A stretch of 35,525 nt of DNA, taken from Candidatus Bathyarchaeota archaeon. GTDB lineage: Archaea; Thermoproteota; Bathyarchaeia; Bathyarchaeales; Bathycorpusculaceae. Each line of letters starts with the position of its first letter. Positions within the stretch are counted from its first letter, which is position 1. Below are positions 2,787 to 30,693 of this stretch, one piece after another. Position numbers and translations under genes: made by a program. The notes under the pieces were generated by a model. It searched no databases. It saw only the letters and a program-made list of their open reading frames with translations, and was not told where the DNA came from. The stretch covers positions 1 to 35,525 of the forward strand of contig DAOVGI010000035.1 in assembly GCA_030672475.1 (NCBI GenBank). The letters run 5' to 3'.

Positions 2787-4397
2787 ATGGTTGCCGCCGG
2801 TTTGAACACGAACATTGCTCTGAGAGAAATCATTGAAACTCTAATGAACATCCCCTCTCCCAGCCACAACCATGTCAACCGTCTCAAGATGCAGATTGCT
2901 GCAAAATATCAACTCGGAAATGTCCCTTCAAACTCGGAAATAATACGCATGCTTAAGCCTCAAGAAAAACGCAAGCTTCTGCCATTTTTAAGGAGAAAAA
3001 CCACACGCACAATCTCAGGCATCACAGTGATAGCTGTAATGACAAAACCTTATCCCTGTCCGCAGTCTGAACCATGCGCCTACTGTCCAGGAGGGCCACC
3101 AATCGGTGTCCCTCAAAGCTACACGGGTTTTGAGCCAGCCGCAATGCGCGGATTACAGAACGAGTTCAACCCTTATTCGCAGATTAAGAATCGCATTGAG
3201 CAGCTGCAAGCAATAGGACATGAAGTTGACAAAATAGAGCTAATAATCATGGGCGGAACTTTTCCAGCCACGCCGCTGAATTATCAAACATCATTTATCC
3301 AACGCTGTTTGGACGCCATAACTGACAAAAACTCTTCTAACCTCACAGAAGCCAAGAAGAATGCTGAAACAAGCAGAATGCGCAACGTAGGCATAACCGT
3401 TGAAACTCGACCAGACTGGGCCAAAGAAGTGCATGTCGACAGCATGCTCAACATGGGTGTAACACGCGTTGAGTTAGGGGTTCAAAACCCAAACGATAAA
3501 ATTTACCGTTTAGTCGGCAGAACACACACAGTTGTAGACGTTGTTGAAGCCACACGCATAATGAAAGACGCCGGACTAAAAATAGTATATCACCTTATGC
3601 CAGGACTACCGAATTCAAACCCAAAAAAAGACTTAGCAGCCTTCAAAGAAATCTTCACAAACCCCGATTTCAAACCTGACATGATCAAGATTTACCCATG
3701 TCTAGTCCTGAAAGGGACAAAAACCTACAAATGGTATCTCGAAGGAAAATATCATCCCTACGCAAACGAGACAGCAGCCAACCTAATAGTAGAAATCAAA
3801 AAGATTATTCCAAGTTGGATACGCATAATGCGTATTCAACGGGACATTCCTGCACCATTAATTGTTGCAGGTGTGAAAAAAAGCAATCTACGCCAACTAG
3901 TGCAGCAGAAACTAAAAGAACAAAACATAAAGTGCAGATGCATACGATGCAGAGAAGTGGGCCACAGAATGCTGAAAGACAAAATTAAACCTGACCCGGA
4001 AAAAATTGAAATCTTGACTGCGAAATATCACGCGTCTGAAGGAGAGGAAATCTTCATCTCGGCAGAAGATGCGGAAAACGACCTTCTAATAGGCTGTTTG
4101 AGGCTGAGAATTCCTTCAGAAAAAGCTCACAGACAAGAAGTGAAAGCCACACCATGTTCTATCGTTCGTGAACTTCACATTTACGGATCTCTTGTTCCAG
4201 TTGGTAAACACTTGGTCGAAGCGTGGCAGCATAAAGGCTATGGCAGCATCCTCCTGAATGAAGCAGAACGCACGTCCAAGGAGGACTATAACATGAAAAA
4301 AGTCTTAGTTATAAGCGCCCTAGGAACAAAAGAATACTATATGCGATTTGGCTACAAGCATGATGGACTATACATGTCGAAAATTCTGGAGGATTAG
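2787..4397 (+). CDS. elp3: Elp3 family tRNA U34 carboxymethyltransferase
   Basis: A 536-residue protein with the two-domain Elp3 layout. The first part is a radical SAM domain with the cluster motif CPQSEPCAYCPGG (Cys 91, 97, 100), followed by the family segments GGTFPATPLNYQ and VETRPDW. The last about 150 residues are a GNAT acetyltransferase domain with an acetyl-CoA loop in WQHKGYGSILL. Archaeal Elp3 alone makes the carboxymethyl group on wobble uridine 34 of tRNA using acetyl-CoA and SAM. The start at 2787 has no clear ribosome binding site, but TTTATTTG lies about 25 bases upstream, so the mRNA may be leaderless. It is followed 2 bases later by gatD, whose GGAGG lies inside the end of this gene. 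Confidence 0.95.
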   Translation: MVAAGLNTNIALREIIETLMNIPSPSHNHVNRLKMQIAAKYQLGNVPSNSEIIRMLKPQEKRKLLPFLRRKTTRTISGITVIAVMTKPYPCPQSEPCAYCPGGPPIGVPQSYTGFEPAAMRGLQNEFNPYSQIKNRIEQLQAIGHEVDKIELIIMGGTFPATPLNYQTSFIQRCLDAITDKNSSNLTEAKKNAETSRMRNVGITVETRPDWAKEVHVDSMLNMGVTRVELGVQNPNDKIYRLVGRTHTVVDVVEATRIMKDAGLKIVYHLMPGLPNSNPKKDLAAFKEIFTNPDFKPDMIKIYPCLVLKGTKTYKWYLEGKYHPYANETAANLIVEIKKIIPSWIRIMRIQRDIPAPLIVAGVKKSNLRQLVQQKLKEQNIKCRCIRCREVGHRMLKDKIKPDPEKIEILTAKYHASEGEEIFISAEDAENDLLIGCLRLRIPSEKAHRQEVKATPCSIVRELHIYGSLVPVGKHLVEAWQHKGYGSILLNEAERTSKEDYNMKKVLVISALGTKEYYMRFGYKHDGLYMSKILED

Positions 4398-4399
4398 AT

Positions 4400-5728
4400 A
4401 TGAACGAAAAAGAAAGGCTTTCCGGCTACAAAGGTGAAGCCTTAGCAGCCATCAGAAAGGCTGAAGTTGAAATAGGAGACTTAATCCGAATAACAAGAAA
4501 CAGCGAAATCCATGAAGGTATTTTGATTCCGCGTTCAGAATACGGAGACAAAAAACACGTGATCATAAAGCTGAAGAGTGGCTACAACATCGGCATACGG
4601 ATAACACCGAACACAAAGATAGAGAGAACAGGAAAAGGAACAAAACCAACCTTCACACAGCCTCCATCCTTAAAACAAAACCCCAAGCTCCCAAAAATCG
4701 CGATAATAAGCACTGGAGGAACAATCGCCAGTCGCGTGGATTACAGAACAGGAGCCGTACGACCTGCCTTGACAGCAAGCGATCTGTACAGCGTTGTTCC
4801 AGAACTGACAAAAATTGCACAATTGGACGCGCAAATACTCTTCAGTCTTCTAAGCGAGAACATAACCCCTAAGCACTGGACGGAAATGGCGAAGGCTGTT
4901 TCAAATCATATATTAAAAGGCGTGGATGGCGTTGTAATAGCCCATGGAACAGACACCATGGGGTATACAGCAGCAGCCCTAACCTTCTCACTGCAGAGTC
5001 TTCCAGTTCCAGTAATACTCGTAGGTTCGCAACGTTCAGCAGATAGACCAAGCTCAGATGCAGCAACAAATCTCATAGGTGCTGTGGTAGCGGCGGCGAA
5101 GGTGCCCTTCGCAGAAGTGTCGGTGGCGATGCATGAATCCACATCAGACTCGTCTATAATCCTTCACAGAGGAGCAAAAGTTCGAAAATGTCATACAAGC
5201 CGAAGGGACGCCTTTAAATCTGTGAATGCAAGTTCACTGGCAAGAGTGCAAGAACAAAGAATAATCATGCTTACGGAAAAATATCGAAAACGCGACTTAA
5301 CAAGAAAGCTCGATTTGAAACCAGAATTCAACGAAAAAGTTGCACTAGTAAAGTTCTATCCCGGCATGAACCCTGCAATAGTTGACTGGTACGTGAAGAA
5401 AGAATACAGAGGTATAATTCTTGAAGGAACAGGCCTCGGTCATGTCGGCAGTTTCTTCTACGAAGCAATACGAAACGCTGTGGAGCATAATGTCGTAGTT
5501 GGCATGACTTCCCAATGCATTTGGGGTCGAGTAGGCATGAATGTTTATGGTCAAGGTCGCGATTTACTGGCTTTAGGCGTAATCGCGTTGGAAGATATGC
5601 TTCCGGAAACAGCCACTGTCAAGCTCATGTGGATTTTCGGACAAACTCGAGACGTGGAAGAAGCCAAAACACTGTTGAAAACGAACGTTGCAGGGGAGAT
5701 TTCGTCACGAACTCTTGCAGAGAAATAA
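4400..5728 (+). CDS. gatD: Glu-tRNA(Gln) amidotransferase subunit D (asparaginase-like)
   Basis: A 442-residue protein. The first 80 or so residues form the small GatD-specific N-terminal domain. The remainder is an L-asparaginase-type amidase with both threonine motifs: STGGTIAS at about 104-111 and HGTDTM at 182-187. GatD releases ammonia from glutamine or asparagine and passes it to GatE, which amidates Glu-tRNA(Gln). The length and N-terminal domain separate it from plain asparaginases, and gatE follows 12-21 bases downstream. The ATG at 4400 has a GGAGG overlapping the end of elp3. Confidence 0.97.
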   Translation: MNEKERLSGYKGEALAAIRKAEVEIGDLIRITRNSEIHEGILIPRSEYGDKKHVIIKLKSGYNIGIRITPNTKIERTGKGTKPTFTQPPSLKQNPKLPKIAIISTGGTIASRVDYRTGAVRPALTASDLYSVVPELTKIAQLDAQILFSLLSENITPKHWTEMAKAVSNHILKGVDGVVIAHGTDTMGYTAAALTFSLQSLPVPVILVGSQRSADRPSSDAATNLIGAVVAAAKVPFAEVSVAMHESTSDSSIILHRGAKVRKCHTSRRDAFKSVNASSLARVQEQRIIMLTEKYRKRDLTRKLDLKPEFNEKVALVKFYPGMNPAIVDWYVKKEYRGIILEGTGLGHVGSFFYEAIRNAVEHNVVVGMTSQCIWGRVGMNVYGQGRDLLALGVIALEDMLPETATVKLMWIFGQTRDVEEAKTLLKTNVAGEISSRTLAEK

Positions 5729-5749
5729 GCGATCAGTAAGGTGAAGAGC

Positions 5750-7651
5750 TTGGAAATAGACTATGAGAAGATCGGGTTGAAAGTGGGTTTGGAAATCCAT
5801 CAACAATTGGACACTTCCACAAAATTGTTCTGCAATTGTGAACCGAAGCTCTTCAAAGAAGAGCCAGAAATAACGTTCCTGCGTAGACTTCGGCCGACAC
5901 AAAGTGAGTTGGGCCAAATAGATCCAGCGGCATACTTCGAATTCCAGAAGGGATTAAGAATTCTGTACGAGGCAGAGAGAGCAACTTCATGTCTTGTTGA
6001 AATGGATGAAGAACCGCCACATCCATTGAACAGGCAAGCTGTTGAAATCACCTTAACTGCAGCATTGCTTATGAACGCTGAACCTGTTGACGAAATCCAT
6101 GTGATGCGCAAAGCAGTTATAGACGGCTCGAACACAACGGGCTTTCAAAGAACATGTGTAATAGCTCTACATGGAGAAGTAAAAGTCGGACAGAAAACTG
6201 TACCAATTTTACATGTAAGCTTGGAAGAGGATGCTGCAAGAAAAACGGGTGAAGAAGAAGGCAACATAATACATTATCGTATAGATCGTCTTGGCATACC
6301 GTTGATAGAAGTGGCAACGGCACCTGTAATAAAATCACCTACAGAAGCAAAAGAAGTCGCACTGGCAATAGGAGGGGTCTTGAGAGCTACTGGAAAAGCC
6401 AAAAGAGGCTTAGGCACAATCCGCCAAGACCTTAACATATCAATTACAGACGGTGGCCTAGTAGAGATTAAAGGAGTACAGGAACTTGAACTGCTTCCAC
6501 TTGTTGTCAAGTATGAAGTCCAACGTCAATTAGGACTTGTAAAGATAAGCGAAGAACTCAGAGCGAGAGGGATGGGGGAAGACATCATTGAGAAAGAATT
6601 TTTTAACGTGACAGACGTTTTCAAGCAGACAAAATGCAGAGTTCTATGCAAAGCCTTAGAGAAGAATCAGCAGATCCTAGCCCTGAAACTCCCAAAATTC
6701 AGGGATATCATTAAACAGGAATTGATGCCTGGTTTCCGTCTTGGAACAGAGATGGCTGACAGAGCCCGTTTCTGGGGAAGAGTTGGAGGAATATTTCACA
6801 CAGATGAACTGCCAGCATATGGAATAACAGCAGATGAAGTGGAGAAGCTTGGAGAGGCTGTTGAAGCCGAAGATCAAGATGCTGTCGTGTTTGTCGCAGA
6901 CAACTCGGAAAACGCTGAAGACGCATTAGAAGCCGTTGTAGAAAGAGCCCGAGAAGCCATAAAAGGCGTACCAGATGAAACACGCGCCCCGAAACCGGAT
7001 GGCACAACCCGTTACATGAGGCCTAGACCTGGAGCAGCAAGGATGTATCCTGAAACAGACATTCCGCCGATACAGATAACAGAAGATGACGTGGAAAGAA
7101 TCAGTTCAAAATTGCCAGAGCTGCCTAAACAAAAACTTGAACGTTTGATGAAAGAGTACAAGCTGAATAAAAAATTGGCTGGACAAGTTTTGGATTCCAA
7201 ATACAGTCTATTATTCGAAACTATCGTGAAAGAGAGCAAAGTTTCATCAACAACCGTTGCAGCGTTCTTAACAGAAACTCTAAAGGCTTTGAAACGTGAC
7301 AGGGTTGAAATTGATAAGATTTCAGAATATCAATTTCGAAAAGTCTTCGGCAAGATAGGTGCTGGAGAATTGGTGAAAGAGGCTCTACCGGACATAATTG
7401 ATTGGTTATCAAAGAATGAGAACAAAGGTGTTCAAGAAGCAATTGAAAATCTTGGTTTGAAAATCATGTCTGAAATTGAGCTTAGAGCACTTATTGGAAA
7501 GGTGATCGAAGAAAACAGAAAACTGATTCAAGAACATCATGAAGACAGTTTCGGAATTCTGATGAGCATTGTCATGAACAAACTGCGAGGCAGAGTAAAC
7601 GCTGCGCTAGTCAGCAAAATTCTGAAAGAAAAACTAAAAGTTGCAGAATAA
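5750..7651 (+). CDS. gatE: Glu-tRNA(Gln) amidotransferase subunit E
   Basis: GatE is the archaea-specific tRNA-binding kinase/amidotransferase partner of GatD. The GatB-like core starts YEKIGLKVGLEIHQQLDTST, with the catalytic-cradle segments RLRPTQSE, MDEEPPHPLN and DGSNTTGFQRT. An AspRS-like insert (about 270-420) and a C-terminal tail domain ending KILKEKLKVAE follow, giving the usual length of about 630 residues. The ORF track begins at GTG 5741. I favour TTG 5750 because AGGTGA (5739-5744) then becomes a ribosome binding site 5 bases upstream, the pattern seen elsewhere in the window. The choice changes only three residues. It is last in the elp3-gatD-gatE operon. Confidence 0.96.
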   Translation: MEIDYEKIGLKVGLEIHQQLDTSTKLFCNCEPKLFKEEPEITFLRRLRPTQSELGQIDPAAYFEFQKGLRILYEAERATSCLVEMDEEPPHPLNRQAVEITLTAALLMNAEPVDEIHVMRKAVIDGSNTTGFQRTCVIALHGEVKVGQKTVPILHVSLEEDAARKTGEEEGNIIHYRIDRLGIPLIEVATAPVIKSPTEAKEVALAIGGVLRATGKAKRGLGTIRQDLNISITDGGLVEIKGVQELELLPLVVKYEVQRQLGLVKISEELRARGMGEDIIEKEFFNVTDVFKQTKCRVLCKALEKNQQILALKLPKFRDIIKQELMPGFRLGTEMADRARFWGRVGGIFHTDELPAYGITADEVEKLGEAVEAEDQDAVVFVADNSENAEDALEAVVERAREAIKGVPDETRAPKPDGTTRYMRPRPGAARMYPETDIPPIQITEDDVERISSKLPELPKQKLERLMKEYKLNKKLAGQVLDSKYSLLFETIVKESKVSSTTVAAFLTETLKALKRDRVEIDKISEYQFRKVFGKIGAGELVKEALPDIIDWLSKNENKGVQEAIENLGLKIMSEIELRALIGKVIEENRKLIQEHHEDSFGILMSIVMNKLRGRVNAALVSKILKEKLKVAE

Positions 7652-11045: not shown

Positions 11046-11723
11046 TCACTTGTAATCTTTCAATGCGATGATTGTTTCTGGTAAGAGTTTTAGGTTTTCG
11101 CCACAATAAGGACAAACTTTGAATTCGGGTAGTATTGATTTTCCGCAAGTAGGGCACTTATCCGAACGTTTTAGGTTTTTCTCGACGTTTTTGATTTCCC
11201 TTTTTAAGCGGTTTAACTCTGTTTTCATTTTGTCAACGCTTTCTTTTAGTGGTTGTATTTCTTTAACTTCTGTCCTCACGTTGTACATTAAGTCCTTGAC
11301 TTGCGCCAAGAGCATGTTATTCATTCCCACCGTTTCGTTCATAGAGTCCAGTAACTCGCTTTTTTCGTCCAGCATTTGAGCTTCAACAGCGCTTTGCTTT
11401 TTGGCGCCTGAGAGTATCTTGTTCAGGAAAGTTTCAACTGGGTTTTCAAAGGCTATTGCACATGTGATTCCCCATAGAAGAACAGTTGAGACGGCGCTTA
11501 CCCAAAAATAAGTGATTGGCAATACATTCTGCAGTTCCTCACTTTTGAACGGATATAGTTGAAAGAGCTTGATATCGGTGTTAAAAATTGCAGCGCCGGT
11601 TGCGTCGATTAAGTGTATGAGTGCAATGAAAGTTAGAGTGCTGAAGACCCATACGCAAATTGCTTTTCTGGCCAAGTGTATTCCTCTGCTCGAGCCCTGT
11701 GACCAAATATTGTATCTTGACAT
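11046..11723 (-). CDS. Membrane protein with coiled coil and C-terminal zinc ribbon
   Basis: A 225-residue protein I do not recognise as a named family. Two membrane helices lie near residues 22-40 and 70-92. A long heptad-like region follows (about 100-185, rich in Glu, Lys and Leu). Near the C terminus is a zinc ribbon of two CPxC knuckles, CPTCGKSILPEFKVCPYCG. The likely topology places the coil and ribbon in the cytoplasm. The ATG at 11723 has no ribosome binding site but a TATA box 23 bases upstream, so the mRNA is probably leaderless. It is divergent from the first of the winged-helix genes; whether the two are linked is unknown. Confidence 0.8.
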   Translation of the reverse strand: MSRYNIWSQGSSRGIHLARKAICVWVFSTLTFIALIHLIDATGAAIFNTDIKLFQLYPFKSEELQNVLPITYFWVSAVSTVLLWGITCAIAFENPVETFLNKILSGAKKQSAVEAQMLDEKSELLDSMNETVGMNNMLLAQVKDLMYNVRTEVKEIQPLKESVDKMKTELNRLKREIKNVEKNLKRSDKCPTCGKSILPEFKVCPYCGENLKLLPETIIALKDYK

Positions 11724-11736
11724 TTAATATAAATGT
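11720..11736. repeat. 17-bp inverted repeat over a start codon
   Basis: ACATTTA and its exact reverse complement TAAATGT are separated by ATA. The repeat covers the ATG of the zinc-ribbon membrane protein (11721-11723) and its upstream side, so a bound protein could block a leaderless start. Confidence 0.5.
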
Positions 11737-11745
11737 TCCGAACAC

Positions 11746-11755
11746 GATATATATC
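11746..11755 (-). promoter_or_regulatory. TATA box, leaderless promoter of the zinc-ribbon membrane protein
   Basis: GATATATATC is self-complementary and lies 23 bases before the ATG at 11723, the spacing expected for transcription starting at the start codon. Confidence 0.6.
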
Positions 11756-11807
11756 AAAATGCGTAAGTTCTAAAAAGGGTTAAAGCTTCTAATAGTTCGG
11801 GATAACC

Positions 11808-12290
11808 TTGCCAAAAAGAAGTGCCAAAACAAAACAAAAGAAAAGTTTCGCCTTTCGCATAAAAATGGGTGACTATGAAGTCGAATTAAACGGAGAACAT
11901 GAAGAAGTTGTGAAGACAATCAAACAACTACCAAGCCTAATGGTTGACGTCTACAAAGCATTTGAAGGTTCCAAACCAAAAACAACAGCAACACTCACAG
12001 TAAAAACAGCACCTGCAAAAAAAGAAATCGCGGTAGAGAAATATCCTAAAATTCCACACACAAAAAATTGCAGCGAAGCGCTCTTAAGTGTTGTAGCCAC
12101 CGACTGGGGGAAGTGGCGTCCTCACACCGTAAAGGAATTAAAGGAAGCGTTGAAAGCTAATGGGTTACGTTATCCAGGACGCACTCTCGCAGGAGTTCTA
12201 ACAAGTCTCGTCAAGAAAGGAAAAGTCAGACGTTGGAAGACAGATGCTGGCTACGTTTACATTCTAGCCGAAGAAGAGATTTTATCTTAA
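11808..12290 (+). CDS. Two-domain winged-helix protein, paralog 1
   Basis: A 160-residue protein starting at a TTG, with a basic lysine-rich tail (PKRSAKTKQKKSF). A short beta-beta-alpha domain follows (FRIKMGDYEVELNGEHEEVV), then a Lys/Thr-rich linker and a C-terminal winged helix. In the last part, VKELKEALKANG, RTLAGVLTSLVKKGKVRRW and a YVYIL wing are visible. The wing and recognition helix suggest DNA binding. The same layout recurs in the next three genes, so this is one paralog family that I cannot name. A TATA-like TCTAAAAAGG about 30 bases upstream fits a short leader. It heads a three-gene operon. Confidence 0.8.
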   Translation: MPKRSAKTKQKKSFAFRIKMGDYEVELNGEHEEVVKTIKQLPSLMVDVYKAFEGSKPKTTATLTVKTAPAKKEIAVEKYPKIPHTKNCSEALLSVVATDWGKWRPHTVKELKEALKANGLRYPGRTLAGVLTSLVKKGKVRRWKTDAGYVYILAEEEILS

Positions 12291-12305
12291 AAGGTGAAAG
12301 CCTAA

Positions 12306-12779
12306 ATGGGAAAAGTGAAAGCGAAAATAAAGACACCCTTCGGCGAAATAATTATTGAAGGCGAAAACCCACAGGAAATCCTCAAAACACTTAAGAACTT
12401 TCCTGAAGATTTCATGGAAAAAACCTCAGACATCATCTCAACAAAGTTTACCCCAACTATAGCAATCCAGCTGAAAGACGTTGTTGAAGTGACCACTGAA
12501 GGCCCTGTCTTGGTGACCAGTGAAAAACTCACACACTATGAAGCTGTAGGCTTAACCCTGTACGCTTCTGAAGGAAAGAAAAACACGTCAGCCCAGATAA
12601 AAAAACTTCTTGAATCTAGTGGAATAAAAAGCATGGTTCCAGCGAGACTGAACGAGATGACAAAAAGAGGACAGGTTTTCAAGCCAGATCCGAACAGGCC
12701 TGAGTTCAAGCTCACAGTGCAAGGTGAAAGATGGATTGAAGACGATGTTTTAGCTAAGATCAGAGGTAAAGTGAAGTGA
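12306..12779 (+). CDS. Two-domain winged-helix protein, paralog 2
   Basis: A 157-residue protein with the shared N-terminal module (VKAKIKTPFGEIIIEGENPQ followed by an amphipathic helix). The C-terminal winged helix comprises HYEAVGLTLYASEG, SAQIKKLLESSGI, MVPARLNEMTKRGQV and a wing ending FKLTVQGERWI. The AAGGTGA ribosome binding site starts one base after the previous stop, 8 bases before the ATG, so expression is coupled to paralog 1. There is no catalytic motif. DNA binding is inferred from fold-like pattern only. Confidence 0.8.
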   Translation: MGKVKAKIKTPFGEIIIEGENPQEILKTLKNFPEDFMEKTSDIISTKFTPTIAIQLKDVVEVTTEGPVLVTSEKLTHYEAVGLTLYASEGKKNTSAQIKKLLESSGIKSMVPARLNEMTKRGQVFKPDPNRPEFKLTVQGERWIEDDVLAKIRGKVK

Positions 12780-12780
12780 A

Positions 12781-13293
12781 TTGACCTCTGGAGAGAATGA
12801 TATCACAATTCAAGTTACATATAAAAATGTTGAAAAAACGTTTTCCGGTCGTGTCAATGACGTTTGGATAAGCATAAACAAGTTTTTCAGCGAGTTCATT
12901 CCAACCTTCAAAATTTCAAGCAGAATAATATTGACAGTGGATTTGCAGAACCTCATCAAAGACTGTACAAACATAATCGCCTTTACAGAGGAAAGCTCAC
13001 ATCTGCTGATTTCAAGCAATAAACTGACAGACAACGAAAACTTGACATTACAACTTCTAGCCAACTACATAGGCCACAGATTAGGCGTAATGGAAAGCGA
13101 TACTGCATCAAAAGAAGAACTGCAGGCCAGATTGGGAAAAAGCTCAAAAATCACGAGCACTCGCCTAGGTGAGCTTGTCAAGAGAGACATGGTAACCAAA
13201 ACAGCGGATGGGAAATACAAGATTACAACTTTCGGCATTATTCAGACACAAAGAGAGGTTTTTCCAAGGATTAAGGCGAAGATGGATATCTGA
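12781..13293 (+). CDS. Two-domain winged-helix protein, paralog 3
   Basis: A 170-residue protein starting at TTG one base after the stop of paralog 2. The N-terminal module is recognisable but more diverged (ITIQVTYKNVEKTFSGRVND). The C-terminal winged helix has LTLQLLANYIG, SKEELQARLGKSSKI, TSTRLGELVKRDMVTKT and a wing GKYKITTFG. It is the last gene of the tandem operon and ends about 60 bases before the convergent fourth paralog. Role unknown; a DNA-binding subunit or regulator is the best guess. Confidence 0.78.
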   Translation: MTSGENDITIQVTYKNVEKTFSGRVNDVWISINKFFSEFIPTFKISSRIILTVDLQNLIKDCTNIIAFTEESSHLLISSNKLTDNENLTLQLLANYIGHRLGVMESDTASKEELQARLGKSSKITSTRLGELVKRDMVTKTADGKYKITTFGIIQTQREVFPRIKAKMDI

Positions 13294-13351
13294 TCAAGCT
13301 GTTATCCTCGAAAGCAAGTGGCAACGGTCGAAACGTGTAAATTCTCCGGTT

Positions 13352-13750
13352 TTATGGCGGTCTTTTCTGAGCGTATTGATACCTCCGCGGTTTTCCCTCT
13401 CTTGCCAATATTCCATCTTTGACCAAATCGATCAACGCATGGGCTACAGCCGTACGATCATAATGGAACCCCCGCCTTGCCATTTCGCTATGCACTTGAC
13501 CTAGGTTTCTCTGAGTTGCAAACCATTCATCTTCCCAAAGCTTTTGGATTAAGCCTTTGCAAGTTTCAGCTCTTAGTGGCGGCGCAGTTCTTTCAGTTAT
13601 CAGCAATGTTCCTTTCAGTTTTTCCGTTACCGTTGAGAGGATTTTTTCAACCGTTGACTGTAGTTGCTCCTCTTGGCATTCTATTTCGAATTCTATTTCT
13701 CCTATTTTCATCTTCACGCGTATTGGTGGTTTTGCTTCTTTTTCTGTCAA
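13352..13750 (-). CDS. Two-domain winged-helix protein, paralog 4, divergent from nurA
   Basis: A 132-residue protein with the same order of parts: IRVKMKIGEIEFEIECQEEQ plus a helix, then a winged helix with CKGLIQKLWED, LGQVHSEMARRG, RTAVAHALIDLVKDGIL and the wing GKPRRYQYAQ. It starts at a TTG with AGGTGA 4 bases upstream. It faces away from nurA across a 92-base spacer with a symmetric TATA box and a perfect inverted repeat. That is the usual arrangement of a self-regulating repressor, but regulation is inferred from position only. Confidence 0.8.
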   Translation of the reverse strand: MTEKEAKPPIRVKMKIGEIEFEIECQEEQLQSTVEKILSTVTEKLKGTLLITERTAPPLRAETCKGLIQKLWEDEWFATQRNLGQVHSEMARRGFHYDRTAVAHALIDLVKDGILAREGKPRRYQYAQKRPP

Positions 13751-13773: not shown

Positions 13774-13796
13774 TTGTGCATCTTGTACATGCACAA
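13774..13796. promoter_or_regulatory. Operator-like perfect inverted repeat (8-7-8)
   Basis: TTGTGCAT, a 7-base spacer and ATGCACAA form a perfect dyad of 23 bases. It sits directly beside the TATA box and covers the predicted transcription start of the divergent winged-helix gene, so a dimer bound here would block that gene and could affect nurA-herA. Confidence 0.6.
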
Positions 13797-13797
13797 C

Positions 13798-13805
13798 ATT
13801 TAAAT
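13798..13805. promoter_or_regulatory. Symmetric TATA box shared by paralog 4 and nurA
   Basis: ATTTAAAT is its own reverse complement. It is 38 bases from the nurA GTG on one side and 48 bases from the winged-helix TTG on the other. Both distances suit short-leader transcripts, so one box may serve both directions. Confidence 0.5.
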
Positions 13806-13842
13806 ATTTCCTTCTTAAACAGTTGATTATTGGTGAATCCTG

Positions 13843-14925
13843 GTGATTGAACAATTAACTATTACAGCTACACCAAAATATAATTTTCCACAACCTACCA
13901 TAGACACATCATTACCCCAACGCCTTTTAGAGCTGAGTATACACTCGTTCAAACAAGTGCAAAACCAGCCAATTCAACTAAATCAACAATTTATTCAACA
14001 AAACAATAACTTCGTACAACATATGCAGACTGTGCAAATCGGATCGCAACCCATAACTTTGAAACGTAAAACGGAACATACAGTAGTTGCAGCTGTCGAC
14101 ACTTCCAGCATGAAAATCGGTGAAACACCCAAAGGAATGCTAATAACAGTTCGAGGAGCATGCGTTTGGAAGCAGAGAAGACAGTACAGGTATTTACGGT
14201 TCGGACCTTTCATTTTTCACGTAACAGACGAAAACAAAAGAGACGTTTACAACGCATTGCGAGGAGGATTTTCCGTTTCTCCATACGAGCATAACAACAA
14301 TAGTTCACCTAGCCTTTTGCAGATGCCAACACGGATAGCAAGTTTCCTCGAAAGATGGCAGCATACTATGCTCTCGAAAACGGTAACTGACGGTCTAATT
14401 CTTTTTGACGGTTCCTTGACTTCAGGAGTTGCTGACACTTCAACGCAACAGATGAAAAAAATCTTGGATGAAGCGAGAAAAAGAGGGAACATAGTCTTGG
14501 CTTTTTCAAAGATGACTAACCTGAGGTCCAATGGATACCTCATAACGGATGTACTCTTAGGACATAAACCGCCCTACCTTCTTCAGATAGCCGGCTTAAA
14601 ACCTAAACCTCCAATTTTATTGTTAGGTGATGTTTATGTAGCCAGGTTTACCAAAGGAAACTATTCCTTCAGACTTGACATCGACAAAGAAGTTCCTATC
14701 ACCTGCCAAATTGAAGCTGTGGAGAAACTCTTGGGAAACGACTTATTTTCACAGAGTTACCCTGAGACTCTTCGTTTAGCTCACATCTTCTGCACCTTTA
14801 CAGCAAACGAAGTTATTGCCATGCAACGTTTCATTGTACACAAATTCGATCTAAAGATCATCAACAGACCAGACATGCACAAACTTCTGTTTGGACCCTT
14901 TGGCAAAGGTGAAAACGCTTCATGA
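13843..14925 (+). CDS. nurA: NurA family 5'-3' nuclease
   Basis: A 360-residue protein. The NurA (RNase H-like) core begins with the metal-binding block VVAAVDTSSMKIG (Asp about 86). It continues with LILFDGSLTSG (Asp about 189), NIVLAFSKMTN and GNYSFRLDI, and ends with a helix segment after PETLRLAHIF. NurA resects DNA ends with the HerA translocase. Before the core is an unusual Gln/Asn-rich stretch (about residues 38-60). The GTG start has GGTGA 6 bases upstream. The stop overlaps the herA start as ATGA, so the two are translationally coupled. Assignment rests on motifs plus the herA neighbour. Confidence 0.85.
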   Translation: MIEQLTITATPKYNFPQPTIDTSLPQRLLELSIHSFKQVQNQPIQLNQQFIQQNNNFVQHMQTVQIGSQPITLKRKTEHTVVAAVDTSSMKIGETPKGMLITVRGACVWKQRRQYRYLRFGPFIFHVTDENKRDVYNALRGGFSVSPYEHNNNSSPSLLQMPTRIASFLERWQHTMLSKTVTDGLILFDGSLTSGVADTSTQQMKKILDEARKRGNIVLAFSKMTNLRSNGYLITDVLLGHKPPYLLQIAGLKPKPPILLLGDVYVARFTKGNYSFRLDIDKEVPITCQIEAVEKLLGNDLFSQSYPETLRLAHIFCTFTANEVIAMQRFIVHKFDLKIINRPDMHKLLFGPFGKGENAS

Positions 14926-16382
14926 AACTTTACAAGAAAGAAGGCAATATCATCCAGATTCTAAGTTTTCCAGATGAAACTGTGGAGAAAGGAGACTATC
15001 TGCTAATTCAAGACAATTATGTGAGAAAAGCTTTAATCGTACAGGTGATCGACGTTCAATTCGCAAACATACCTGGCATCTTTGAAGAATTACTCCGCAG
15101 TCTTCCGGACGGCGGAGAACAGGTTAAAGGAGAAGATTTTGATCCTCTGGAAATTGCTCCTCACATCACGTACATTCAGGATGCAAGGCTTCTCCGATGT
15201 AAAATCCGTGCAACAATGGAAAACGAAATTTTGAACCCGAACAGTTCATGGCTTCCCTCCCGCTCCAAATCAACAATAAAAAAAATGTCAATCCCAACTC
15301 TGCTTAAACTTGCAAAAGTTGATGGGAAACTACCAATAATCTTAGGAGGCACAAAAGATTCAATGCTTCTGACAATTGATGCTTCGTCTTTGGACGGAAG
15401 GTTAAACATAATAACTGGGAAGAAAGAAACTGGCAAGTCCCATCTGTCTAAGCTCTTAATGCTTAACTTAGTAGGGTACGGAGCCACTGTAGTCGTTTTT
15501 GACTTGAACGGGGAATACATAAACCTAGGCGTGACATCAGACGGAAAAAGAAATGGCTACTACAACAAGATTCACGTTTTGACTCCTTCCAAAAACTTTA
15601 AGGTTGCTCTGAAACAGCTACACCTGCGTGTCTTGTTAAATATTCTTGTTCATGCACTCCATCTGCCTGGAACATCCACTCGCGAGTTCAGGCACATGTG
15701 GCAATCCTTGAAAGAGCGAGATAATCTTACTCTACATGAACTAGGAGAAGTCATACGCAACTGGCGTTGCAACAACCATGTCCGAGACGCTCTTTTCTCA
15801 CGTTATTACTCCTTGGTTAACTCTGGCTTTTTCACTGATAATGTTGCAGAAGCTATGCTACTGGAAGAACGGCTGTTTAGGGCTAAGAAGGAAGGTGGCG
15901 CCATTGTGATAAACCTGCGAAACACTTCCTCTATGGATCGACAGATAGTTGTTGAATATGTGCTTGGGAAACTTGTTGAATTGTTGACAAACTGGAAACT
16001 CAAAGCTGTTTTTCTCTTCGCTGAAGAAGCCCACATTTACCTGCGTGAAACCTATTGGGATGACATTATAACGCGAATGCGACATTTCGGGATTTTCACA
16101 ACCTTCATAACTAACCAGCCAAACACAATTCGTGAAAACATATACCGCCAAGCAGACAACATATTTCTGTTAAACTTCACAAATGAACACGATTTAGAAG
16201 CGGTTTCACGAGCAGCCAGAGCGGATGCTGAAACAGTTAAATCCATTGCTCAAGATTTACCGCCACGTCACTGTCTCGTCCTTGGAAAAGCCGTTAAAGA
16301 TTTCCCGATGGTTGTCAAGATTAAAGCATTAGACATAAAAACCATGGGAGAAACAAGGCTGTTCTTTAAAGACATGAATTGA
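14922..16382 (+). CDS. herA: HerA family DNA translocase ATPase
   Basis: A 486-residue protein. An N-terminal HAS-barrel-like domain (about 1-95) precedes a RecA/FtsK-type motor. The P-loop GKKETGKSH (166-174) differs from the usual GxTGSGKS/T form but keeps G-x4-GKS. VVVFDLNGEYINL follows, then Walker B FLFAEEAH (364-371) and FGIFTTFITNQPNTI in the sensor region. HerA hexamers pump DNA and stimulate NurA in double-strand break resection. The gene overlaps nurA by 4 bases and its 3' end overlaps the convergent Nudix gene by 17. No mre11 or rad50 is in the window, unlike the common archaeal cluster. Confidence 0.88.
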   Translation: MKLYKKEGNIIQILSFPDETVEKGDYLLIQDNYVRKALIVQVIDVQFANIPGIFEELLRSLPDGGEQVKGEDFDPLEIAPHITYIQDARLLRCKIRATMENEILNPNSSWLPSRSKSTIKKMSIPTLLKLAKVDGKLPIILGGTKDSMLLTIDASSLDGRLNIITGKKETGKSHLSKLLMLNLVGYGATVVVFDLNGEYINLGVTSDGKRNGYYNKIHVLTPSKNFKVALKQLHLRVLLNILVHALHLPGTSTREFRHMWQSLKERDNLTLHELGEVIRNWRCNNHVRDALFSRYYSLVNSGFFTDNVAEAMLLEERLFRAKKEGGAIVINLRNTSSMDRQIVVEYVLGKLVELLTNWKLKAVFLFAEEAHIYLRETYWDDIITRMRHFGIFTTFITNQPNTIRENIYRQADNIFLLNFTNEHDLEAVSRAARADAETVKSIAQDLPPRHCLVLGKAVKDFPMVVKIKALDIKTMGETRLFFKDMN

Positions 16383-26533: not shown

Positions 26534-26854
26534 TCAAGACTCTTCTGGTTCCGTCTTTTCCATCAAACTAAGGATTTCTGAATCACCGGGTTCTTTTATA
26601 CTTAACGCTGAGATGACAAATGGTTTGCCACATACAGCAGCCAAGTCTATAGATGAGCCCTTATAGATTGTCAGTGGAACATTTGAAAGTTGGCAATAAT
26701 ATTCTATGTCTTCACGTGTGTTCTTTGGGCAGTTGGCAGCCAAGATTATCAGTTTGGCTTTCCCCATCTTTGCGCTCTGTATGGTGGAGTTCGCGCCCAA
26801 GGACACCTTGCCTGTTTTTACAACCGTTACAATCGCCTTATCGGTGTCTATCAC
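26534..26854 (-). CDS. rpl30e: Ribosomal protein L30e
   Basis: A 106-residue L7Ae/L30e-family protein. KTGKVSLGANSTIQSAKMGKAKLII and AANCPKNTREDIEYYCQLSNVP are typical of L30e, and the segment FVISALSI closes the domain. It is a component of the large ribosomal subunit. It starts at a GTG overlapping the rpoA stop (GTGA), with GAGGAGG upstream. The C terminus (SEILSLMEKTEPEES) is a short acidic extension. Confidence 0.95.
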   Translation of the reverse strand: MIDTDKAIVTVVKTGKVSLGANSTIQSAKMGKAKLIILAANCPKNTREDIEYYCQLSNVPLTIYKGSSIDLAAVCGKPFVISALSIKEPGDSEILSLMEKTEPEES

Positions 26855-29800
26855 TTGTCTTTCCTCCTCAATTTGGATGTTGACATATACAATTCAACTA
26901 GTCCTGTGCCTATCGGTATGGATTGCCCTACTATTACGTTTTCGGTCACACCATCCAATGGGTCGCTTTCACCGGTCACTGATGCCTTGACAATGTTTGG
27001 AACTGTTATTTCGAATGCTGCCCTCGCTAGAACGCTTGATTTCTTACCGCTTATTCCATGTCTCCCTATCTGCTGCACTTCACCTGTGGACGTCATTGTA
27101 TCCGCAACGAGCATTATATGACGGATATCAACATCTAAACCTTGTTCCTCTAAGACGCCGTTAGCTTCATTTATTAAGGAGTTTCTGGCAGCTTCTATTC
27201 CCAGAGTCTTAGCTATTTCATGAACGTTATTCGTTGTTGTTCGTGGTGCCTCAACTGTGGAGACTTCTAGAACTCTAGGGAGGTTTGACCCGTCTGTTCT
27301 TATAACCCATTCTCCGCCTTCTTCCGTCACCAACACCCGCTTTATTTTGGGTACACCTTTAATGTGGAAGGAGGCAACTTTGGGAAGTAACTTTTTGAGG
27401 TTTTCAGCTTTTTCAGGTTTTATGTTTACTCGGTCACCTCTTGCCTTTATGGTGCAGTTCCTTGCCTTTATGGTGCAGTTCGGTAGCTCCAACAGATTCT
27501 TCAATTCTTTTATTGTTACTCTTCTGTCTTCCATCATCGTTTTGCTAAGTTTCACCACAATTTCATCTTTTAAGGGGCCTTCATAGATCGCTTCTGATAA
27601 GTCTTCAATCCTCGTATGTATTATGTTCCGCGCGATTTCTGTTGCAGCTTCCTTGCTTTTTCTGCATTTTTTAGTCAAGTATACAGTCATGATCGGTGTA
27701 GATGGTATTCTTCTTGCGTCAACGATTTCTATCAGTCTTGGCAATCCCAGAGTCACGTTTTGCTCTCGAACTCCTGCATAATGGAATGTTCTGAGAGTCA
27801 TCTGTGTACCAGGTTCACCTATTGATTGAGCTGCAATTATGCCCACTGCTTCACCTGGCTCCATAAAAGCACGCTTGTAGTGTTCAACCGTCAATTTTAC
27901 TGCTTTTTCCACACCTGTTTCTGTTAGTTCCGCTTTCGCCAAAATCTGTCTCAGTTTCTTTATAAGGAGCGGTGTAAGCTGATCTTCAACCTCTTTCAAT
28001 CGTCTTTTAACAGATTCAGATGAGGCTGGTGTGCCTTTTCTCATTGCGATTCTTATCTGTTCAATTAGTCGGGTTACGTTCACCGCTTTTCCATGGTCGC
28101 TTTTGGCTGGGTCAACACCGTCTTCACCATATTTGAATTGGATTATGTCTCTACATGAAGTTCTAACTGTTCCATCATATTCCAATCGCAGGTGCTCCAG
28201 TGCGTTTATCAGTCTTCTTTGCATGTATCCGCTTTGCTGTGTTCTGACGGCGGTGTCGACAAGACCTTCTCTGCCACCCATAGCATGGAAGAAGAATTCA
28301 ATTGAGTCAAGCCCCGTCTGGTATGAGGAATAGACGAACCCTCTTGCTTTCGGGCTTGGATCGCCAGGTTTGAAGTGGGGTAAGGCGCGATCCCGATATC
28401 CCCGCATTATCCTTTTTCCACGTACTGCTTGTTGCCCCACGCATGCGCTCATCTGTCCAATGTTCAGGTTTGATCCTCTAGCGCCTGTTCGAGTCATCAC
28501 TATGCCTGAATTCTCAAGTGTAAAGTCCTCGTCAGCTATTTTTCCAGATTGATCCCTCGCCTCAGCCAGTTCGTTCATCACGTATATTTCAAATGAAGCT
28601 TCAAGCGTTTGCCCCGGAAGTCTTTGTAAGGTACCTTTACGATATTTGTCTATCAATACTTCTATTCTTTTTTCTAGTCTTTCCATGGTTTTTTTTATTT
28701 TGTTTTCAGCATTTGAGGACAAAACCAGTTCGTCATATGAGTACGTGAAGCCTCTCATAGTTATAAAAAGCTTCAGCATACGCATTACCTTGTTCAGGAA
28801 TTCACGTCCAGCTTCTGACCCGTAATCCTTTATTATCCTGTGAAGGAGACTTTCTGACTGTTCAGCGCCTATTGAGCGTCTATCTATGACACCGCTTATC
28901 AGTTTACCGTTCTTAACAACAACGTAGGCGTCGTAGGGACAGTCTTCCTTCTTACATTTGTCGCATCCGTGACAGATGTTCGCTTTCAAAACGTAACTGA
29001 AGTCTTCTGGTATAAACAGGCTAAAAATCTGTTTGCCGCTCCATAATGGTTGAGGCGTTTTTATTTGTGGTTTCGGCAACTTTCCATCATATCTCGCTGC
29101 CATGAGTAATCTGCTGGTTTCAGTTTTTGTTAGATAGTTTGATTTTCTTGTGAACAAGTACGAGGCTGTTATGAAATCTCTGATCGCTCCTATTATTGGA
29201 CCTCCGAATCTTGGCGACAGTATTTGATCTTGAACCTGCATCAGTATGCGAGCTTCCGTTTGTGCCTCTTGGCCTTGCGGTATATGAAGGTTCATTTCAT
29301 CTCCGTCAAAGTCAGCGTTGTATGGTGGGCAAACACAAAGGTGCAAACGGAACGTTTTGTAAGGCAGAACGCGCACATGGTGAGCCATAATTGACATCCT
29401 GTGAAGCGAAGGCTGACGATTAAAGATGGCTATGTCACCGTTTTTGAGATGCCTTTCCACAATGAATCCGGGCTCCAAAGCCTCCGCGACTTTTTCTCTG
29501 TCAACAACGAATTCAAGTCTTATACGTTTACCATCAGGTCTGATAATGTATAGTACACCGGGATACTTTTCAGGTCCATTTATCACTAGTCTACGCATTT
29601 CTTCAATGTTCCATTCTGTGATCTTTTCAGGCACAGATAGCCGCATGGCAACTTCAAGTGGAACTCCAACCTCATTTATTTCCAGGTTCGGATCAGGCGA
29701 AATCACTGTACGTGCTGAAAAATCAACTCTTTTTCCTGAAAGGTTGCTTCTGAATCTTCCCTCTTTCCCCTTCAACCTCTGTGATAGCGTCTTTAGCGCT

Positions 29801-30693
29801 CTCCCTGAGCGATGCCTTGCGGGAGGTATGCCTGACGCTTCATTATTGAAGTATGTTGTTGCATGATACTGGAGAAGCTCTGATAAGTCTTGAATTATGA
29901 GCGTAGGCGCTCCAGCATCCATGTTTTCCTTAAGTCTCTGGTTGATGCGGATTATGTCCACCAGTTTGTGAGTGAGGTCGTCCTCCGAGCGTATCCCCGA
30001 TTCTAACGTTATTGACGGACGCACATATACTGGTGGAACTGGTAAAACTTGTAGAACCATCCATTCAGGATGTGCAGCTTTCGGGTTGAATCCTAGGAGT
30101 TCAAGGTCTTCGTCTGGTATACGTTCCAGTCTTTCCCGAACCATGCTAGGTGTCAGCGGTTGCGAACCGCTCTCAGGGATTACCTCGTTGTACCTTGTTG
30201 GTTTTTCGAATTTTATTTTGTATTGAATTGCCCCACAATGGGGACACTGCTTTCCTCGTGCGGCGAGCTCTATTTTTTTATACAGATCATTCGGAACTGC
30301 ACCTAAAAGTTGACGTGCTCTCTTGATTCTAGCTTGGACTTCTCCTATCGTATCATCTGGAAGCAAAATGTGTCCACAGTTTCGACACGTTGTCCTGAGA
30401 AGCGCGTATATGATTTTTGTGAATGACATGTGTATTATTGGAACAGCCAGTTCGATGTGGCCGAAGTGGCCTGGACACCGGATGGCTGTGTTGCCGCATG
30501 TTTTACACCTTTGCCTTGGTTCAAGGGTTCCAAGTCTGCCATCCATTAATCCGGAGGTTATGGAGGCGCCATCCTCGTCGTAGGTGTCTGGTGTTTGGAT
30601 TTCGACGACTGAGAGTTTACGTATGTCCTGCGGTGAAAGCAAACCGAAGCTAATTTCATCGACAACTTTGTGAACTGTCTCTTCTGCAGCCAT
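26851..30693 (-). CDS. rpoA: RNA polymerase subunit A, unsplit (A' plus A'')
   Basis: A 1280-residue single protein covering both A' and A'', which most archaea encode as two genes. Features in order: the N-terminal zinc site CKTCGNTAIRCPGHFGH, a second CRNCGH...CPHCG site, and the active-site Mg loop YNADFDGDEMNLH near residue 450. A CHGCDKCKKEDC insert, the funnel and bridge region MGGREGLVDTAVRTQQSGYMQ, and the A'' part GEAVGIIAAQSIGEPGTQMT follow. Near residues 1070-1084 NCTIKAR is repeated twice in tandem. It begins 1 base after the rpoB stop, with AAGGAGAAGG inside rpoB, and overlaps rpl30e. Confidence 0.97.
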   Translation of the reverse strand: MAAEETVHKVVDEISFGLLSPQDIRKLSVVEIQTPDTYDEDGASITSGLMDGRLGTLEPRQRCKTCGNTAIRCPGHFGHIELAVPIIHMSFTKIIYALLRTTCRNCGHILLPDDTIGEVQARIKRARQLLGAVPNDLYKKIELAARGKQCPHCGAIQYKIKFEKPTRYNEVIPESGSQPLTPSMVRERLERIPDEDLELLGFNPKAAHPEWMVLQVLPVPPVYVRPSITLESGIRSEDDLTHKLVDIIRINQRLKENMDAGAPTLIIQDLSELLQYHATTYFNNEASGIPPARHRSGRALKTLSQRLKGKEGRFRSNLSGKRVDFSARTVISPDPNLEINEVGVPLEVAMRLSVPEKITEWNIEEMRRLVINGPEKYPGVLYIIRPDGKRIRLEFVVDREKVAEALEPGFIVERHLKNGDIAIFNRQPSLHRMSIMAHHVRVLPYKTFRLHLCVCPPYNADFDGDEMNLHIPQGQEAQTEARILMQVQDQILSPRFGGPIIGAIRDFITASYLFTRKSNYLTKTETSRLLMAARYDGKLPKPQIKTPQPLWSGKQIFSLFIPEDFSYVLKANICHGCDKCKKEDCPYDAYVVVKNGKLISGVIDRRSIGAEQSESLLHRIIKDYGSEAGREFLNKVMRMLKLFITMRGFTYSYDELVLSSNAENKIKKTMERLEKRIEVLIDKYRKGTLQRLPGQTLEASFEIYVMNELAEARDQSGKIADEDFTLENSGIVMTRTGARGSNLNIGQMSACVGQQAVRGKRIMRGYRDRALPHFKPGDPSPKARGFVYSSYQTGLDSIEFFFHAMGGREGLVDTAVRTQQSGYMQRRLINALEHLRLEYDGTVRTSCRDIIQFKYGEDGVDPAKSDHGKAVNVTRLIEQIRIAMRKGTPASSESVKRRLKEVEDQLTPLLIKKLRQILAKAELTETGVEKAVKLTVEHYKRAFMEPGEAVGIIAAQSIGEPGTQMTLRTFHYAGVREQNVTLGLPRLIEIVDARRIPSTPIMTVYLTKKCRKSKEAATEIARNIIHTRIEDLSEAIYEGPLKDEIVVKLSKTMMEDRRVTIKELKNLLELPNCTIKARNCTIKARGDRVNIKPEKAENLKKLLPKVASFHIKGVPKIKRVLVTEEGGEWVIRTDGSNLPRVLEVSTVEAPRTTTNNVHEIAKTLGIEAARNSLINEANGVLEEQGLDVDIRHIMLVADTMTSTGEVQQIGRHGISGKKSSVLARAAFEITVPNIVKASVTGESDPLDGVTENVIVGQSIPIGTGLVELYMSTSKLRRKDK
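27440..27481 (-). repeat. Exact 21-bp tandem duplication inside rpoA
   Basis: CTTGCCTTTATGGTGCAGTTC occurs twice without a gap (27440-27460 and 27461-27481, given as plus strand). It duplicates seven residues, NCTIKAR, in the A'' part and keeps the frame. Confidence 0.95.

What the first reader, a model, noticed from the sequence alone, without database searches (positions are those of the whole stretch)
11808..13750. An unnamed paralog family: beta-beta-alpha module plus winged helix
All four proteins line up in the same order. The N-terminal strands are FRIKMGDYEVELNG, VKAKIKTPFGEIIIEG, ITIQVTYKNVEKTFSG and VKMKIGEIEFEIEC. Each is followed by an amphipathic helix, a variable linker, and a winged helix whose last helix reads xxLxxLVKxGxV or similar. 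Tandem duplication followed by divergence suggests subunits of a hetero-oligomer or regulators with different sites.
Basis: seen in the sequence. Interest (0 to 1): 0.62.

Follow-up and report, generated by a model that had tools for sequence, protein, structure and literature searches.

The report
Winged-helix family beside HerA–NurA genes
Four small DNA-binding-type proteins of an uncultured archaeon prove to be an old, unnamed family that is kept across a whole phylum next to a DNA-pumping and DNA-cutting enzyme pair (HerA–NurA), and one of them probably switches that pair and itself on and off at a single conserved DNA site.

Summary
The four ORFs (P1 11808-12290, P2 12306-12779, P3 12781-13293, P4 13352-13750 on the minus strand) are paralogs with a beta-hairpin + helix N-terminal module and a C-terminal winged helix. 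Profile comparison and two AlphaFold2 models agree. They form two subfamilies, P1/P4 and P2/P3, each orthologous across classes of Thermoproteota, so this is not a recent local duplication.

Next door lie a divergent NurA nuclease gene (13843-14925) and a HerA ATPase gene (14922-16382). Across 300 genomes of the phylum, P4 sits head-to-head with NurA–HerA in 70 of 71 testable cases. P2-P3(-P1)-NurA-HerA form one operon in other classes. One lineage fuses a P2-type winged helix to HerA.

The shared P4/NurA promoter holds a palindrome, TTGTGCAT-N7-ATGCACAA (13774-13796), directly after a TATA box. Its exact form occurs once per genome, only there, in 13 of 26 genomes scanned.

Best reading: DNA-binding regulators or partners dedicated to a HerA–NurA machine, with P4 likely an autorepressor. 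Which protein binds the site, and whether P1–P3 touch HerA–NurA, is inference. No library family or readable paper names the family. It is a new variant of a known kind.

The parts
11808..12290 (+). P1, 160 aa: beta-beta-alpha module (about residues 15-55), linker, winged helix (about 85-155); P1/P4 subfamily
   Evidence: ORF; orthologs across Bathyarchaeia; profile match to P4 in both halves
12306..12779 (+). P2, 157 aa: beta-beta-alpha module, hairpin, winged helix, C-terminal helix; P2/P3 subfamily; found in 50 of 61 near relatives
   Evidence: ORF
12781..13293 (+). P3, 170 aa: beta-beta-alpha module, helices, hairpin, winged helix, C-terminal helix; P2/P3 subfamily
   Evidence: ORF; AF2 mean pLDDT 92; sub-threshold Pfam winged-helix hit HVO_A0261_N E=6e-5
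13352..13750 (-). P4, 132 aa: beta-beta-alpha module plus very conserved winged helix with tail QKRPP; likely autoregulator of the divergent P4/NurA promoter
   Evidence: ORF; alignment A1; AF2; divergent adjacency to NurA in 70 of 71 testable cases
13774..13796 (.). Operator candidate: palindrome TTGTGCAT-CTTGTAC-ATGCACAA; the only match in the window at up to 3 mismatches; exact form once per genome
13798..13806 (-). TATA-box-like element (TATTTAAAT) of the P4 promoter, about 1 nt upstream of the palindrome; nearly self-complementary, so it may also serve NurA
   Evidence: sequence; same spacing in 42 upstream regions
13843..14925 (+). NurA2: divergent NurA-family nuclease; no Pfam hit by itself, but orthologs pass the NurA cut-off; invariant D86, D189, K223, H314
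14922..16382 (+). HerA2: divergent HerA ATPase (DUF87 E=7e-13) with intact Walker A GKKETGKS and Walker B FAEEAH

Best explanation
The four proteins belong to one archaeal family of small DNA-binding-type proteins (beta-beta-alpha module plus winged helix). The family is dedicated to a divergent HerA-NurA pair, a ring-shaped DNA-pumping ATPase and its nuclease. SHOWN by sequence: common ancestry of the four; two subfamilies; linkage with NurA-HerA across the phylum; a unique palindrome between P4's TATA box and its expected start site. INFERRED: P4, probably as a dimer joined through its N-terminal module, binds that palindrome and blocks its own promoter and, through the shared TATA region, that of nurA-herA, so the amount of the machine is fed back. 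INFERRED, less sure: P1-P3 are the winged-helix DNA-contacting partners (loading, targeting or end recognition) of the HerA-NurA machine. Separate probabilities: family 0.95; functional tie to HerA-NurA 0.9; P4 as autoregulator at this site 0.6; P1-P3 as physical partners 0.4.
For: Family. Tie: in 300 phylum genomes P4 (80) and NurA2 (91) co-occur in 72 (Fisher p=8e-42, not corrected for shared ancestry), and 70 of 71 pairs on one contig are divergent and adjacent, mostly about 100 bp apart. For 7 of the 8 genomes with P4 but no NurA2 hit (families f22, f26, f31), the three loci read, one per family, have another PF09376 NurA plus DUF87 HerA pair divergently beside P4. The operon P2-P3(-P3'-P1)-NurA-HerA occurs in f10, f11, f13, f15, f20, f40 and f29. 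Natural fusion of HerA ATPase + coiled coil + P2-type winged helix, domain E=6e-30. In one genus most members lack P4 and NurA2 together while keeping P2. Operator: the exact pattern is found once per genome in 13 of 26 genomes, always at P4/NurA2, reversed control 0; TATA+TTGYGCA occurs 60 times before P4 and 9 times elsewhere in 2.8 Mb of strand sequence; the outer TTG..CAA and the inner C-G pair are mirror-symmetric in 30 of 30 sites and the next A-T pair in 29.
Against: No binding data; the protein that binds the palindrome is not identified, and P1-P3 are possible too. 13 of the 26 genomes lack the exact pattern (relaxed forms are present in many), and a dyad-versus-shuffle test on single loci is significant in only 16 of 58. 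The site is not recognisable in f39 loci (L139, L140). P4 is absent from lineages where NurA2 lies in the P2-P3 operon. P1-P3 are often not next to NurA-HerA even in Bathyarchaeia (G011: about 70 kb apart), and P2 survives where NurA2 is lost, so P2 must have some independent role. Related orphan P4/P1-like proteins exist without NurA-HerA.
Confidence: 0.6

Rival explanations
1. All four are ordinary local transcription factors of unrelated regulons that merely sit near NurA-HerA; the common N-terminal module is a dimerisation device.
For: Winged helices resemble MarR/BlaI/Fur/RTP-type folds. Orphan members exist without NurA-HerA. P2 is kept when NurA2 is lost.
Against: Phylum-wide divergent coupling of P4 to NurA-HerA, co-operon P2-P3-NurA-HerA in several classes, HerA fusion, and an operator whose exact form has no second copy in the genome speak against an independent regulon, at least for P4.
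Confidence: 0.25
2. P1-P4 are structural subunits (hetero-oligomer) of the HerA2-NurA2 machine with no regulatory role; the palindrome is bound by some other factor.
For: HerA-coiled coil-P2 fusion, co-operons, extreme conservation of P4's winged helix and tail in Bathyarchaeia.
Against: The conserved divergent arrangement and a dedicated palindrome at P4's own promoter are the usual signature of autoregulation; P4 and P1-P3 are often in separate transcription units.
Confidence: 0.2
3. The HerA2-NurA2 pair with its small proteins is an antiviral defence island.
For: HerA2 scores best against anti-phage HerA models (NF042943 E=8e-12, PADLOC HerA and mad8). A 2026 paper suggests a defence role for HerA-NurA (PMC12977600).
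Against: P2 is found in 30 of 34 near-complete relatives; the genes sit beside housekeeping genes (GatD/GatE, RNA polymerase), keep their order across classes, and have no viral or plasmid relatives found. The NCBIfam scores are far below curated cut-offs.
Confidence: 0.1

Closest known systems
HerA-NurA helicase-nuclease (archaeal; PDB 4D2I for HerA)
   Same: The window's ATPase matches PDB HerA 4D2I over residues 97-477 (E=2e-9); NurA2 orthologs pass PF09376; gene order nurA-herA; Walker motifs intact.
   Different: Scores far below HerA equivalog cut-offs (29 vs 800 bits). Several Nitrososphaeria-type genomes carry a second, more canonical HerA-NurA pair elsewhere. No Mre11 or Rad50 among the neighbouring proteins annotated; instead winged-helix paralogs.
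Small archaeal/bacterial winged-helix regulators (BlaI/Penicillinase_R, MarR, HVO_A0261_N, replication terminator RTP)
   Same: Winged-helix half: P4-type members hit Penicillinase_R (19 of 57, best 7e-5) and RTP; P3-type members hit HVO_A0261_N, HTH_24 and MarR_2; fold matches to RTP, BlaI, Fur, MarR.
   Different: For the window's own proteins every hit is below the curated cut-off and covers only the winged helix. The N-terminal beta-beta-alpha module has no convincing Pfam, PHROG, PDB-sequence or Foldseek match.
Winged-helix partners of DNA motors (KITE subunits of SMC complexes; from memory, not tested)
   Same: Idea only: small winged-helix proteins encoded beside, and once fused to, a DNA-translocating ATPase.
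   Different: HerA is not an SMC protein; no sequence test was made.

Membership tests
One paralog family of P1-P4 | Homologous N-terminal beta-beta-alpha module | tested here: met
   All six profile pairs above permuted and unrelated controls; AF2 for P3 and P4. Weakest pair P2-P4, probability 60%.
One paralog family of P1-P4 | C-terminal winged helix homologous in all four | tested here: inconclusive
   Strong within P1/P4 and P2/P3; between subfamilies 11-65%. Fold is a winged helix in both modelled proteins.
HerA family | DUF87 core with Walker A and B | tested here: met
   PF01935 E=6.7e-13, over the curated cut-off; motifs
HerA family | Curated HerA equivalog score | tested here: not met
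   NF040937 29.4 vs 800 bits; NF040819 29.9 vs 970
NurA family | PF09376 match over cut-off | tested here: inconclusive
   Not met by the window protein itself; met by its orthologs at the same position; the NurA2 profile also finds the canonical NurA of another genome (G240, E=2e-6)
NurA family | Catalytic acidic residues and C-terminal histidine | tested here: met
   D86, D189, H314 invariant in 19 orthologs; activity not tested
Autoregulatory divergent winged-helix repressor | Conserved divergent arrangement with target operon | tested here: met
   70 of 71
Autoregulatory divergent winged-helix repressor | Dyad-symmetric operator in the shared promoter | tested here: met
   exact form in 13 of 26 genomes scanned
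Autoregulatory divergent winged-helix repressor | Protein binds the operator and represses | not testable with these tools
   needs EMSA/footprint and transcription assay
Known anti-phage HerA systems | Curated score and a defence partner protein | tested here: not met
   NF042943 44.5 vs 800 bits; no PADLOC partner protein among the six proteins beyond HerA-type hits and one weak winged-helix hit

The most novel reading that the evidence does not exclude
P1-P4 are a dedicated set of winged-helix subunits that load and steer a second, phylum-wide HerA-NurA DNA-processing machine, separate from the Mre11-Rad50-linked one. P4 doubles as the sensor that represses the machine's genes through one private operator when it is not engaged on the machine or on DNA ends.
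Probability: 0.25. Interest if true: 0.75.

Novelty: new variant of a known kind. Interest (0 to 1): 0.52.

Why it matters
How archaeal HerA–NurA is controlled and loaded is an open question, and even its role in end resection has recently been doubted (PMC12977600). This work names concrete candidates: a conserved family with no Pfam or NCBIfam model, genetically tied to a second HerA–NurA pair in Bathyarchaeia, Nitrososphaeria-type and other Thermoproteota, and a 23-bp site that can be tested in one gel-shift experiment. An operator kept at the same position relative to the TATA box across classes of a phylum would be unusual.

Tried and rejected
Single-sequence searches against Pfam, NCBIfam and the PDB gave nothing for the N-terminal module. 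PHROGs and PADLOC gave only generic winged-helix hits for the small proteins. Foldseek matched only the winged helix. First narrow profiles (Neff 2-3) left most cross-pairs unresolved; widening the alignments settled it. The 440 + 640 aa gene pair upstream first looked like part of the system but is GatD/GatE. An RNA hairpin or terminator reading of the palindrome was rejected by argument: it lies between the TATA box and the expected start, so half of it would not be transcribed with P4. The per-locus dyad-versus-shuffle test had little power (16 of 58 at p<=0.05), so the argument rests on position, conservation and uniqueness. Literature: no paper in the readable library describes the family or the arrangement; subscription papers could not be searched.

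Full report
WHAT WAS CHECKED. The four ORFs are at the coordinates given, and all quoted stretches are present. The window comes from an uncultured Bathyarchaeia genome (857 kb MAG, 86% complete). For short: P1 11808-12290 +, P2 12306-12779 +, P3 12781-13293 +, P4 13352-13750 -.

ARE THEY A FAMILY? Yes. Narrow profiles showed only two certain pairs, P1~P4 (HHalign 96%, E=5e-9) and P2~P3 (98%, E=3e-12). After collecting members from about 200 loci, the N-terminal modules alone matched in every pair: P1-P2 96.3%, P1-P3 94.7%, P1-P4 95.9%, P3-P4 94.5%, P2-P3 88%, P2-P4 60%. Scores were 20.7-40 against at most 17.1 for 60 column permutations per pair and at most 15.4 for 44 windows of unrelated proteins. 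The winged-helix halves are strongly alike only within P1/P4 and P2/P3. A genome search with the P1 profile found P4 of the same genome in both halves (E=4e-6 and 9e-4).

STRUCTURE. AF2 of P4 gives two strands (10-16, 19-25), a helix (27-47) at moderate confidence, then a winged helix at pLDDT about 92. AF2 of P3 gives the same opening (strands 7-14, 17-24; helix 25-39) at high confidence, then two helices, a second hairpin, a winged helix and a C-terminal helix (mean pLDDT 92). Foldseek against the PDB found only winged helices (RTP, BlaI, Fur, MarR, the pNOB8/AspA centromere protein), none with E<=0.001. The N-terminal module has no convincing match in Pfam, PHROGs or PDB sequences.

Immediately beyond P4, on the other strand, are a 360-aa and a 486-aa gene. 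The second is a HerA ATPase (DUF87 E=7e-13; PDB HerA 4D2I E=2e-9; Walker A GKKETGKS and Walker B FAEEAH intact), but far below the curated HerA cut-offs. The first has no Pfam hit by itself, but its orthologs at the same position pass the NurA cut-off. The alignment keeps D86, D189, K223 and H314 in all 19 members, and its profile finds canonical NurA in other loci. I call them NurA2 and HerA2. Several Nitrososphaeria-type genomes have another, more canonical HerA–NurA pair elsewhere.

HOW TIGHT IS THE LINK? Over 300 genomes of the phylum, P4 (80 genomes) and NurA2 (91) co-occur in 72 (Fisher p=8e-42). 70 of 71 P4 genes with NurA2 on the same contig are divergent and adjacent, most with about 100 bp between them. 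These counts are not corrected for shared ancestry. Eight genomes have P4 without a NurA2 hit. Seven of them belong to families f22, f26 and f31, and the three loci I read, one per family, have a PF09376 NurA plus DUF87 HerA pair divergently next to P4; the eighth (G239) was not resolved. In other classes P2-P3(-P3') lie directly upstream of NurA-HerA on the same strand (L145, L147, L149, L155, L156, L193), with P1 included in L144. One lineage encodes a HerA ATPase core, a coiled coil and a P2-type hairpin plus winged helix in one 466-aa protein (L142 5773-7173; domain E=6e-30). Within one genus, most members lack P4 and NurA2 together and keep P2. That ties P4 to NurA–HerA more tightly than P2.

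THE OPERATOR CANDIDATE. On P4's strand the promoter reads TATTTAAATG-TTGTGCATGTACAAGATGCACAA-TTCAATAAACAATAGGTGAAAGA-TTG(start). The palindrome (13774-13796) follows the TATA box directly, so it should cover the region from about -20 to the start of transcription (inference from usual archaeal spacing). In 26 Bathyarchaeia genomes the pattern TTGYRCATN7ATGYRCAA occurs in 13, once in each, with 0 in the reversed control. All 13 sites lie between P4 and NurA2 (L194-L206). TATA followed by TTGYGCA was seen 60 times before P4 and 9 times elsewhere in 2.8 Mb of strand sequence, and one of the 9 is the other strand of a P4 site. In 30 aligned sites TTG...CAA and the inner C-G pair are mirror-symmetric in all, and the next A-T pair in 29. 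In family f22 the arms differ but stay symmetric (TTGTTGATTG-TT-CAATCAACAA; L132, L133, L136). Relatives in f23, f27 and f46 keep TTGCGCA after the TATA box with a weaker second arm (L152, L153, L175, L187). Caveats: the single-locus dyad test is significant in only 16 of 58 loci, and f39 loci (L139, L140) show no such site.

HOW IT MOST LIKELY WORKS. Shown: one family, its link to NurA–HerA, and a private palindrome at the shared promoter. Inferred: P4 binds the palindrome and shuts off its own gene and, because the AT-rich TATA region is shared, nurA2-herA2. The absence of a second exact site argues against a wide regulon. Less certain: P1–P3 bring DNA-binding winged helices to the HerA–NurA ring, as the fusion and operons suggest. 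Rivals are plain transcription factors, pure structural subunits, or a defence island (see fields). The defence reading is least likely because the genes are widespread among close relatives (P2 in 30 of 34 near-complete genomes), sit among housekeeping genes, and have no viral or plasmid relatives found.

WHAT IT WORKS LIKE VERSUS WHAT IT IS. P4 works like an autoregulated divergent winged-helix repressor; it is not a member of the BlaI or MarR families by their curated cut-offs. HerA2 and NurA2 belong to the HerA and NurA superfamilies but not to the curated HerA equivalogs. The four small proteins form a family for which I found no model and no paper in the readable library; absence from that library is not proof of novelty.

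VERDICT. Observation confirmed; interpretation partly supported. New variant of a known kind, of moderate-to-good interest because it names a testable site and partners for HerA–NurA control.

Noticed in passing
L142:5773-7173 (-): 466-aa natural fusion of a HerA ATPase core (lacking the N-terminal barrel), a coiled coil and a P2-type hairpin plus winged helix.
   Followed up: partly
L157:2842-5352 (-): The HerA gene beside P4 in this lineage is interrupted by an intein (PF14890 E=6e-20).
   Followed up: no
window 11724-11807: Conserved block upstream of P1 in Bathyarchaeia (CGTAAATTCTAAAAGGAGTTAACAC and similar), between P1 and a divergent membrane/zinc-ribbon gene (11046-11723); in the window also TGTTC-C-GAACA. 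Possibly the P1-P2-P3 promoter with its own control.
   Followed up: no
L176-L182: Small, mostly closed genomes of family f17 keep one orphan P4/P1-like protein (beta-beta-alpha plus winged helix) with no NurA-HerA nearby, in a conserved neighbourhood.
   Followed up: no
L168:4674-6786: Three to four tandem P2-like genes on both strands, without NurA-HerA hits nearby.
   Followed up: no
window 2787-7651: Elp3, GatD and GatE; GatD-GatE recur upstream of the P1-P2-P3 locus in other classes, so the neighbourhood is old.
   Followed up: partly
window 26851-30693: RNA polymerase subunits A' and A'' are encoded as one fused 1280-aa protein.
   Followed up: no
window 13774-13806 and P4 wing (13352-13420): Lineages with TTGYGCAT arms tend to have a P4 wing GxPRRY, those with TTGTTGAT arms GxxGKY; a hint that P4 is the binder, from very few independent changes and not tested formally.
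   Followed up: no
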